DNA from: Anodontia alba
Lineage: Eukaryota; Mollusca; Bivalvia; Lucinida; Lucinidae
Direction of reading: 5' to 3'
DNA length: 64,000 nucleotides
Assembly (NCBI GenBank): GCA_964016985.1
Contig: OZ024821.1
Coordinates: 10,436,550-10,500,549, forward strand
The notes beneath the pieces were generated by a model, which did no database searches, had not been told where the DNA came from, and was given only the letters and a program-made list of their open reading frames with translations. Shown in pieces: positions 35,901-38,900 of the stretch. Positions within the stretch are counted from its first letter, which is position 1. Each line of letters starts with the position of its first letter. A program made the translations under genes and the position numbers.

Positions 35901-38900
35901 TATGCCATATGATGTAATTTGCAAAGACTATAGACAGCCTGTGCAATCACTGTCTTATTAGGGTATAATGTATTAACATAGCTCCAGATAAGAAGGTTTG
36001 TCCTGTTATTTTTTTCTTATTTCTTCACAAAAGCATATGTTGTGGGCACTCATTAAAAGTACCTTAGAAACGTGTTTCTAACAAGTACCCATAACATTTA
36101 GTTTTGGTTGAAAAAGTGCCTTATGTGGAGCTGTGTTTCCATCGACATATTCTACAGTATCCATTGTTTCTGTAGGCATGCAATGGACCTGATCAGACTG
36201 CTTAAATGTGCAAACTGATCTGGGCTGTCATTACCCACACACATGATAAAAGTTTCCTCACATTGCATATTATTTATAGATAATAGATAGTATTGATACG
36301 TTTCTCATTTCTTCACAAAAACGAATGTTGTGGGTACTCACAAGAAGTGCCTTAGTGAGATGCTTCTTACCTTCAACCATAGGTCTAGATAAGAGTGGGT
36401 ATTAGGTAAATATTTTTCTTATTTCTCCACAAAAACATGTTGTTGGTACTCATTAGAAGTGCCTCGCTGAGGCACTTCTAATGAATACCCACAACATATG
36501 TTTTTGTGGAGTAATAAGACAAATATCAATACTTTTGGATTGAAAAAAGCATCTTATCAGGAGCTATGTTATAAATCAACATATAGTTTTTGTGAACAAA
36601 TAAGAAAAATTCTTACTCGTTATCCCATTTTTCCAGAGCTATGGTTTGATAAGGGTTATTTTTTTCTGAATATTTAGGATAAGGATTACTTTTTGTATGA
36701 ACTTAAATGTTTTTGTTTGATTGTTTTAGGTAATGACTTTATGGGCATTGTGTAATTGTTTTAGGTTATGACTTTATGGGCATTGTGTGATTGTTTTAGG
36801 TTATGACTTTATGGGCATTGTGTAATTGTTTTAGGTTATGACTTTATGGGCATTGTGTAATTGTTTTAGGTTATGACTTTATGGACATTGTGTGATTGTT
36901 TTAGGTTATGACTTTATGGGAATTGTATGATAGTTTTAGGTTATGACTTTATGGGCATTGTTTGATTGTTATAGGTTATGATATTTATGGGCATTGTGTG
37001 ATTGTTTTAGGTTATGATACTTATGGGCATTATGTGATTGTTTTAGATTATGATATTTATGGGCATTGTGTGATTGTTTCAGGTTATGATATTTATGGGC
37101 AATATGTGATTGTTTTAGGTTATGACTTTATGGGCATTGTGTGATTGTTTTAGGTTATGACTTTATAGGCATTGTGTGATTGTTTTAGGTTATGCATTTA
37201 TGACTTTATGGGCATTGTGTGATTGATTTAGGTTATGACTTTATGGGCATTGTGTGATTGTTTTAGGTTATGATATTTATGGGCATTGTGTGATTGTTTT
37301 AGGTTATGACTTTATGGGCATTGTGTAATTGTTTTAGGTTATGACTTTATGGGCATTGTGTGATTGTTTTAGGTTATGACTTTATGGGCATTGTGTGATT
37401 GTTTTAGGTTATGACTTTATGGACATTGTGTGATTGTTTTAGGTTATGATATTTATGGACATTGTGTGATTGTTTTAAGTTATGATATTTATGGGCATTG
37501 TGTGATTGTTTTAGGTTATGACTTTATGGGCATTGTGTGATTGTTTTAGGTGATGACTTTATGGGCATTGTGTGATTGTTTTAGATTATGACTTTATGGG
37601 CATTGTGTGATTGTTTTAGGTTATGATATTTATGGGCATTGTGTGATTGTTTTAGGTTATGACTTTATGGGCATTGTGTGATTGTTTTAGGTTATGACTT
37701 TATGGGCATTGTGTGATTGTTTTAGGTTATGATATTTATGGGCATTGTGTGATTGTTTTAGGTTATGATATTTATGGGCATTGTGTGATTGTTTTAGGTT
37801 ATGCCCTTATGACTTTATGGACATTGTGTGATTGTTTTAGGTTATGACTTTATGGGAATTGTATGATTGTTTTAGGTGATGACTTTATGGGCATTGTGTG
37901 ATTGTTGTAGGTTATGACTTTATGGGCATTGTGTGATTGTTTTAGGTTATGATATTTATGGGCATTGTGTGATTGTTTTAGGTTATGACTTTATGGGCAT
38001 TGTGTGATTGTTTTAGGTTATGATATTTATGGGCATTATGTGATTGTTTTAGGTTATGATATTTATGGGCATTATGTGATTGTTTTAGGTTATGATATTT
38101 ATGGGCATTGTGTGATTGTTTTAGGTTATGATATTTATGGGCATTATGTGATTGTTTTAGGTTATGATATTTATGGGAATGAGTATGAGCCAGATCTAAT
38201 GCCAGACCAGTATGGGGAAGAAGATTTTGTTAGCATCACGGTAGGTATATATGTCATGGTGTCTGTTTAGAAAGATACTCTGTGTTTGTGGGAAAACATG
38301 TTCCTAATGCAAAAATGAAAATGTACCTAATGCAAAAACTTACATCTTTGTGTATATGTATATAGAATACTGTATTTACCCTAAGTATCGGACACCTCAA
38401 CTCCTTACCATATATGTTCTAAAATTTGAATCAGCACAATTCACTACCCGATGTTGTGTCTAAACATTGCTGGATGAGTTGCAAACAGTGTAGACCCAGA
38501 TGAGACGCCGCATTCTGCGGCGTCTCATCTGGGTCTAAACTGTTTGCTCAGGCCTTTCTGTCTGAATACATATGGTAAATACGGTATTTGGACAGACATG
38601 TCTGAGAAACACTGTAGATCTTGATCCATGGATTTGTTAAGGGTTTATACTGTTTGCCATTTCACCAGCTCTTTTTTAACACAGGTAGTTAAATCTGTAG
38701 CATTGTCTCCTTCACCTTTGGATATATTTCAACTGAACTAGCTGTATACTTCCCTGGGATGCTACAATTTTACAATAGCACATCTGCTTTTGACCCTGAC
38801 TGCTGGTGCTTGGATGGGAGAGGGTCCAAGCTTCATCCTCCTACACTGTTGGATGAACAAACCAGATTTGCTGTTTGCCTTCCACAGGTGCAACAGTCTG

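What the first reader, a model, noticed from the sequence alone, without database searches (positions are those of the whole stretch)
36718..38240. Minisatellite made of a duplicated 3' splice junction: ~40 tandem acceptors before one exon
Each 35/36-bp unit is the last ~19 nt of intron 3 (CATTGTGTGATTGTTTTAG) plus the first 16-17 nt of the next exon (GTTATGATATTTATGGG), so each repeat carries a plausible acceptor. The last five acceptors (before 38017, 38053, 38089, 38125, 38161) are exactly 36 nt apart. Using any of them keeps the frame and inserts 0-4 copies of a 12-residue unit (GYDIYGHYVIVL) ahead of the RING. The 35-nt units shift the frame and run into stops, so use of most upstream acceptors would destroy the product. 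Array length could thus change isoform output or gene expression between individuals. Seen: units, spacing, frames. Inferred: that more than one acceptor is used.
Basis: partly seen in the sequence, partly recalled or inferred. Interest (0 to 1): 0.88.

Follow-up and report, generated by a model that had tools for sequence, protein, structure and literature searches.

The report
Forty copied acceptors before one exon
In a gene for a RING-finger protein, from what is likely a bivalve genome, the last bases of an intron and the first bases of the next exon are repeated in tandem 40 times just before that exon, nearly every copy keeping the signals of a splice acceptor; the gene likely still splices mainly at the copies nearest the exon, so this is probably a mostly harmless, many-copy example of a repeat type described in lancelets.

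Summary
Between 36713 and 38177 lie 40 units (23 of 35 nt, 15 of 36, two of 43), each an intron-3 tail plus an exon-4 head, in front of exon 4 (38161-38240) of a predicted seven-exon RING gene. Of 41 acceptors, only the last five (exon starts 38017-38161) keep the full-length frame; the other 36 meet a stop at least 233 nt before the exon-4 donor. No second locus or retrocopy was found. All eight homologues from the full-length search lack the 12-residue insert. A genomic ORF, probably from a close relative, has the same exon-4 peptide (26 of 26) and no exon copy in the 31 intron bases visible before it, so the array is probably lineage-specific. It fits a described kind: 'mirage' minisatellites, tandem copies of intron-exon boundaries known from amphioxus, which reportedly do not disturb splicing. 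In this genome two of 58 other sampled loci carry boundary-spanning duplications, no more than the tandem-repeat background predicts. Best reading: a neutral mirage resolved by use of the exon-nearest acceptors. One feature is unusual: by the scanning rule the working branch point should lie inside repeat DNA, or intron 3 goes in two steps through the first unit, whose AG|GTAATG could act as a recursive site. No RNA from this species could be examined.

The parts
36713..38177 (+). Minisatellite of 40 tandem copies of the intron 3/exon 4 boundary (23 x 35 nt, 15 x 36 nt, 2 x 43 nt), running into exon 4
   Evidence: TRF; unit parse
36730..38016 (+). Units 1-36: acceptors whose use leads to a premature stop
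   Evidence: translation of all 41 outcomes; acceptor 22 at its true AG
38017..38160 (+). Units 37-40, all 36 nt: in-frame copies, 12 residues each (YDIYGH(Y/C)VIVLG)
36696..36729 (+). Intron tail ending at the first AG, with a possible branch point (TTAAATG at 36703) about 25 nt before that AG, and a better pyrimidine tract (0.76) than the other 40 acceptors (0.47-0.59)
   Evidence: the branch point is inferred from the motif
36728..36735 (+). AG|GTAATG at unit 1: juxtaposed acceptor and donor-like site (possible recursive splice site)
   Evidence: U1 duplex energy -6.6 for the regenerated junction, against -5.8 to -10.9 for five predicted genuine donors
38108..38158 (+). Zone where the branch point for the exon-4 acceptor should lie under the AG-exclusion rule; entirely repeat DNA, best candidate TTATGAT near 38131
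   Evidence: AG positions, sequence; rule from PMC1431707 passages; inferred
27322..29961 (+). Predicted exon 1 of the RING gene
31917..32051 (+). Predicted exon 2
   Evidence: resembles the matching segment of P0001 and P0002
34846..34963 (+). Predicted exon 3, donor AAG|GTAAGA
38161..38240 (+). Exon 4 (YDIYGNEYEPDLMPDQYGEEDFVSIT); GYDI invariant in 9 of 9 aligned proteins
40304..40390 (+). Predicted exon 5
42827..43060 (+). Predicted exon 6, most of the RING domain
   Evidence: Pfam zf-RING_11 and zf-RING_2
47147..47191 (+). Predicted last exon, RNAVCPVCRQSARQ and stop

Best explanation
This is a minisatellite made of 40 tandem copies of an intron-exon boundary (a 'mirage'), and the gene most likely tolerates it because the spliceosome is predicted to pick the acceptors closest to the downstream donor (exon definition), mainly the last one, so that the array would be removed with intron 3. 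Shown: the units, the acceptor signals, the reading frames, no second locus in the searches made, and no insert in the homologues read. Inferred: that the array arose by repeated duplication of one boundary after the split from a close relative; that exon definition limits use to the nearest acceptors; that the last four units, all 36 nt, make small slips among the last five acceptors harmless; that the branch point in use now lies inside repeat DNA, because the intron's own candidate is stranded behind 40 AGs. Array length itself would then be largely neutral.
For: Units combine the exon head and the intron tail. The exon-adjacent acceptor gives the conserved protein: GYDI invariant in 9 of 9 aligned proteins, no insert in 8 of 8 homologues. 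A probable close relative's ORF has an identical exon-4 peptide (26 of 26) and no exon copy in the 31 intron bases visible. One array locus in the genome (the 8 exact pattern matches all lie in it). No retrocopy: of 17 protein matches, 4 are the gene's own exons and the other 13 are at most 54% identical and do not reach the exon 3/4 junction. Boundary-spanning duplications also occur elsewhere in this genome: L042 (2 x 52 bp at an acceptor) and L056 (about 76 bp, 2.9 copies by TRF, at a donor), 2 of 58 loci; 5.9% of bases away from matches lie in arrays, so about 4 hits at roughly 66 exon ends would come by background alone. Amphioxus mirages are reported not to disturb splicing (PMC3087553 and PMC3902484 passages).
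Against: No RNA known to be from this species was available. The first acceptor, not the last, has the best pyrimidine tract of the 41 (0.76 against 0.47-0.59) and the intron's own candidate branch point, so a first-come acceptor could win. (Tract content is no sure guide: exon 3's acceptor has only 0.41, exons 5-7 have 0.71-0.88.) Nearly all units keep AG (40 of 41), so nothing obvious in their sequence switches the upstream copies off. The terminal run of four 36-nt units is modestly non-random (shuffle P = 0.015; 2 of 40 rotations), which could hint at selection on frame. The amphioxus paper itself notes that units could serve as cryptic splice sites.
Confidence: 0.6

Rival explanations
1. 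Several of the last five acceptors are used at appreciable levels, giving a family of proteins with 0-4 extra 12-residue units before the RING, so array variation near the exon diversifies the protein.
For: All five give full-length frames and are near identical in sequence; the terminal run of four 36-nt units is unlikely under random order (P = 0.015).
Against: No insert in 8 of 8 homologues, and no insert-bearing protein in two searches with insert-bearing queries (8 of 13 hits read, 1 hit); but no protein known to be from this species was found, so this is weak. Units 37, 38 and 40 share a sequence found in no other unit, so the terminal run may simply be a recent local duplication.
Confidence: 0.22
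2. Upstream acceptors are used often and feed transcripts into nonsense-mediated decay, so array length tunes the gene's output like a rheostat.
For: 36 of 41 acceptors give a stop 233-1485 nt upstream of the exon-4 donor, far beyond the usual 50-55 nt rule (recalled). The first acceptor has the best tract of the 41.
Against: Exon definition disfavours very long exons (established knowledge, not tested); these would be 259-1511 nt. Amphioxus mirages reportedly do not yield aberrant mRNA (passage).
Confidence: 0.15
3. Recursive splicing: exon 3 is first joined to unit 1 with the original branch point, recreating a donor (AAG|GTAATG); that donor is then spliced to the exon-4 acceptor, removing the array as a second intron.
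For: 38 of 41 sites read AG|GT. Unit 1 alone has GTAATG; its regenerated junction has U1 duplex energy -6.6, as good as predicted donors of exons 1, 5 and 6 (-5.8, -6.7, -6.6), against -4.1 for 36 of 41 sites. Ratchet points are defined by AG|GT (PMC8906543 passages).
Against: Intron 3 is only 3.2 kb; Drosophila recursive introns are exceptionally long. Units 24 and 33 (GTGATG) score alike (-6.7), so unit 1 is not unique in energy. The pattern was noticed after the fact: 2 of 105 single changes would reach that energy. Of 104 GTs in intron 3 before the array (true donor included) 7 score as well as unit 1 in place. The donors of exons 3 and 4 are stronger (-9.5, -10.9).
Confidence: 0.08

Closest known systems
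Amphioxus 'mirage' minisatellites (Adh3, troponin C, globins BflGb6/BflGb9, PGBD5)
   Same: Tandem repeats spanning an intron-exon boundary, many units with AG/GT; BflGb6 duplicates an intron end plus an exon start, as here
   Different: Here 40 units against 3 and 6 in the two BflGb6 haplotypes (Adh3 copy number not seen); units of 35/36 nt against 150-160 bp in BflGb6 (Adh3 10-72 bp); host likely a bivalve; length instability and splicing unknown here
Intron gain or alternative introns from tandem arrays (Zhuo et al. 2007, not held, seen only as a citation; human tandem-repeat study PMC2812944, passages read)
   Same: Tandem copies carrying splice signals at an exon-intron boundary
   Different: Those create new introns; here the array lengthens an existing intron and no new intron is shown
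Recursive splicing at ratchet points (Drosophila; PMC8906543, passages)
   Different: Short intron, weak donor half in most units, no RNA evidence
NAGNAG tandem acceptors (PMC3250501, listing and abstract start only)
   Same: Competing acceptors that can keep frame
   Different: 36-nt spacing with a full acceptor module per copy, not 3 nt

Membership tests
Mirage minisatellite | Tandem repeat spanning an intron-exon boundary | tested here: met
   40 units of intron tail plus exon head
Mirage minisatellite | Many units carry AG/GT splice signals | tested here: met
   AG in register in 40 of 41, AG|GT in 38 of 41
Mirage minisatellite | Homogenised units within the cluster | tested here: met
   19 distinct sequences among 40 units, one present 10 times and one 8 times; exact repeats up to 112 nt
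Mirage minisatellite | Length instability between haplotypes or somatic cells | not testable with these tools
   one assembly, one locus found
Mirage minisatellite | Regular splicing undisturbed | not testable with these tools
   no RNA known to be from this species; homologues lack the insert
[quoted passage not shown]
   38 of 41 AG|GT, but only 3 of 41 regenerated junctions reach the U1 energy of predicted genuine donors
Recursive splice site | Junction reads or lariats from the intermediate | not testable with these tools
   no RNA
Alternative tandem acceptor | More than one acceptor seen in transcripts | not testable with these tools
   no RNA; no insert-bearing protein among those read
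RING-type E3 ligase gene | RING domain above the curated cut-off | tested here: met
   PF17123 39.6 bits (cut-off 27), PF13639 35.2 bits (cut-off 27.3); ligase activity not tested

The most novel reading that the evidence does not exclude
The array is a self-correcting splice ratchet: almost every unit is an AG|GT site, so a wrongly chosen upstream acceptor recreates a donor and is re-spliced towards the exon. Intron 3 is removed in two or more steps through unit 1 (AG|GTAATG), which makes the final protein independent of how many copies an individual carries.
Probability: 0.08. Interest if true: 0.82.

Novelty: new member of a known kind. Interest (0 to 1): 0.45.

Why it matters
It would extend boundary-spanning minisatellites from lancelets to a bivalve genome (no mollusc case in the listings, which cover an open-licence library only; one search listed 10 of 28 papers). 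It also offers a natural test of acceptor choice: some 40 near-identical acceptors in one intron, the first with the original candidate branch point and best tract, the last with the real exon. One RNA data set would show whether scanning, exon definition or re-splicing decides, and whether copy number affects a coding gene.

Tried and rejected
Retrocopy as a natural cDNA: none among 17 matches. Second locus or other haplotype of the array: none found (the tool warns that its DNA search skips common words). Window species taken as Mercenaria from genome size: not supported; the Mercenaria protein is 60% identical over the C-terminal part and matches the paralogue at C1:129.9 Mb less well still (about 51% against 72% over the RING exon). 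Reading exon 3 in its longest open frame: rejected, it does not join exon 4; the homologue-supported frame does. Selection on the terminal 36-nt run: weak and explainable by local duplication. Mirages as unusually frequent in this genome: not supported, 2 seen against about 4 expected at background (rough, exon ends judged by match ends). One search listed four arrays within 60 nt of a match; L020's lies in the intron beyond the exon and L057's inside the match, so they were not counted. In one search, 10 of 200 shuffles also gave a hit to the L056 motif at that looseness, so the copy near 2304 is weakly supported; the TRF array (score 207) does not rest on it. Base-rate sample of 58: 20 kinase loci with short frames chosen by me from the 135 matches (a further 20 were asked for and not given), the 30 best-match loci of that call (22 with frames over 262 aa, left out of the exon-end count) and 8 RING paralogue loci, 5 of them in the exon-end count.

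Of the 13 hits I read eight (P0009-P0016); one of these (P0009) spans the junction, without the insert. The five unread ones cover 33-46% of the query.

Full report
Observation. TRF finds one array at 36713-38177 (period 35, 40.9 copies, score 2299). Parsed by its AG|GT core it holds 41 acceptors, AG ends 36729 to 38160, separated by 23 units of 35 nt, 15 of 36 nt and two of 43 nt. The common 36-nt unit carries the exact head of exon 4 (GTTATGATATTTATGGG) and an intron tail; the 35-nt form differs by ATA to C. AG is in register in 40 of 41 and AG|GT in 38 of 41. One locus was found in the 1.86-Gb genome, and the eight exact matches to a 29-nt unit pattern all lie in it.

Gene. Predicted exons at 27322-29961, 31917-32051, 34846-34963, 38161-38240, 40304-40390, 42827-43060 and 47147-47191 join to a 1,112-residue frame ending in a RING (Pfam PF17123 and PF13639). 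Homologues come from Ruditapes, Mercenaria, Mya, Mactra and Dreissena and from three unnamed contigs, so the source is taken to be a bivalve. P0001 and P0002 are frames of 1,041 and 1,011 residues on contigs of about 3.2 kb and look like transcripts (inference).

Frames. Exon 3 ends in phase 1. I translated the outcome of all 41 acceptors (acceptor 22 again at its true AG). Five, the last, give full-length protein with 0-4 copies of a 12-residue unit. Thirty-six give a stop; all 23 that open on a 35-nt unit stop after seven residues, and the distance from stop to the exon-4 donor is 233-1485 nt.

Comparison. In the alignment of the window's C-terminal part with eight homologues, GYDI at the start of exon 4 is invariant and no protein has the 12-residue insert. 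Six of the eight (all but P0001 and P0002) carry other, unrelated residues after GYDI. A search with the array ORF gave one hit, P0022, an ORF on a 404-kb contig: exon 4 identical in 26 of 26 residues, intron side MNHCDLFEVL(G), that is 31 nt of intron with no exon copy, and a different sequence after the donor.

Mechanism. Under the scanning and AG-exclusion rule (PMC1431707, passages) the branch point of an acceptor lies between it and the previous AG, or within about 15 nt upstream of that AG. For 38160 that zone is about 38108-38158, all repeat. The intron's own candidate (TTAAATG at 36703) sits about 25 nt before the first AG and more than 1.4 kb, with 40 AGs between, before the last. So either the working branch point is repeat-made, with the exon-derived TTATGAT/TTATGAC as the best candidate, or splicing is stepwise. 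Unit 1 has the best pyrimidine tract of the 41 (0.76 against 0.47-0.59; exon 3's own acceptor has 0.41, exons 5-7 0.71-0.88) and is the only one with GTAATG; joined to exon 3 it makes AAG|GTAATG with U1 duplex energy -6.6, like predicted donors of exons 1, 5 and 6 (-5.8, -6.7, -6.6; those of exons 3 and 4 are -9.5 and -10.9). Units 24 and 33 (GTGATG) reach -6.7, 36 others -4.1, two -0.2. I keep direct use of the exon-nearest acceptors as most likely, by exon definition (established knowledge, untested here) and by the amphioxus precedent.

Background. In 58 other loci of the same genome two have a tandem duplication across an exon end: L042, 2 x 52 bp at a kinase-exon acceptor, and L056, about 76-bp units at a kinase-exon donor. 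Two further arrays near matches do not span an end (L020, L057). Arrays of period 12 or more cover 5.9% of bases away from matches; with 33 exon-like loci, about 4 of 66 ends would be hit if exon ends were not protected. So boundary-spanning repeats look like a by-product of general tandem duplication rather than an enriched device. The counts are small and the exon ends approximate.

Known kinds. [quoted passage not shown] PMC3902484 (one passage) adds PGBD5 and troponin C. The original Adh3 paper and Zhuo et al. 2007 were not held. My answered searches listed no mollusc case, but the library holds open-licence papers only, searches listed 20 of 43 and 10 of 28, and only listings and the named passages were read.

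Verdict. Observation confirmed; alternative acceptor use unproven; a new, many-copy member of a known kind, with a testable question about where its branch point lies and whether it is removed in one step.

Noticed in passing
P0012 (genomic ORF on a 3.9-Mb contig of another organism): The RING exon end plus the donor appears tandemly repeated (CHIYHxECIDEWLKVCHCH, 19 codons, about 2.5 copies); P0014, a similar ORF, lacks it. This suggests a donor-side mirage in the same gene of another bivalve; assembly error not excluded.
   Followed up: partly
L042:1410-1513: Near-identical 2 x 52 bp duplication of an intron tail plus exon head at a kinase exon (PAK-like by recalled motif) in the same genome.
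   Followed up: partly
L056:1987-2202: Degenerate tandem copies (about 76 bp, 2.9 by TRF) of a kinase exon's end and donor; a further copy near 2304 is weakly supported.
   Followed up: partly
window 44311-46272: 145-bp x 13.6 tandem array in intron 6 of the same gene.
   Followed up: no
window 34265-34613 and 26259-26530: Two short arrays of a 144-bp unit, one shortly upstream of exon 3.
   Followed up: no
window 22700-23578 (-): 292-residue ORF that looks like a Tc1-type transposase (recalled resemblance).
   Followed up: no
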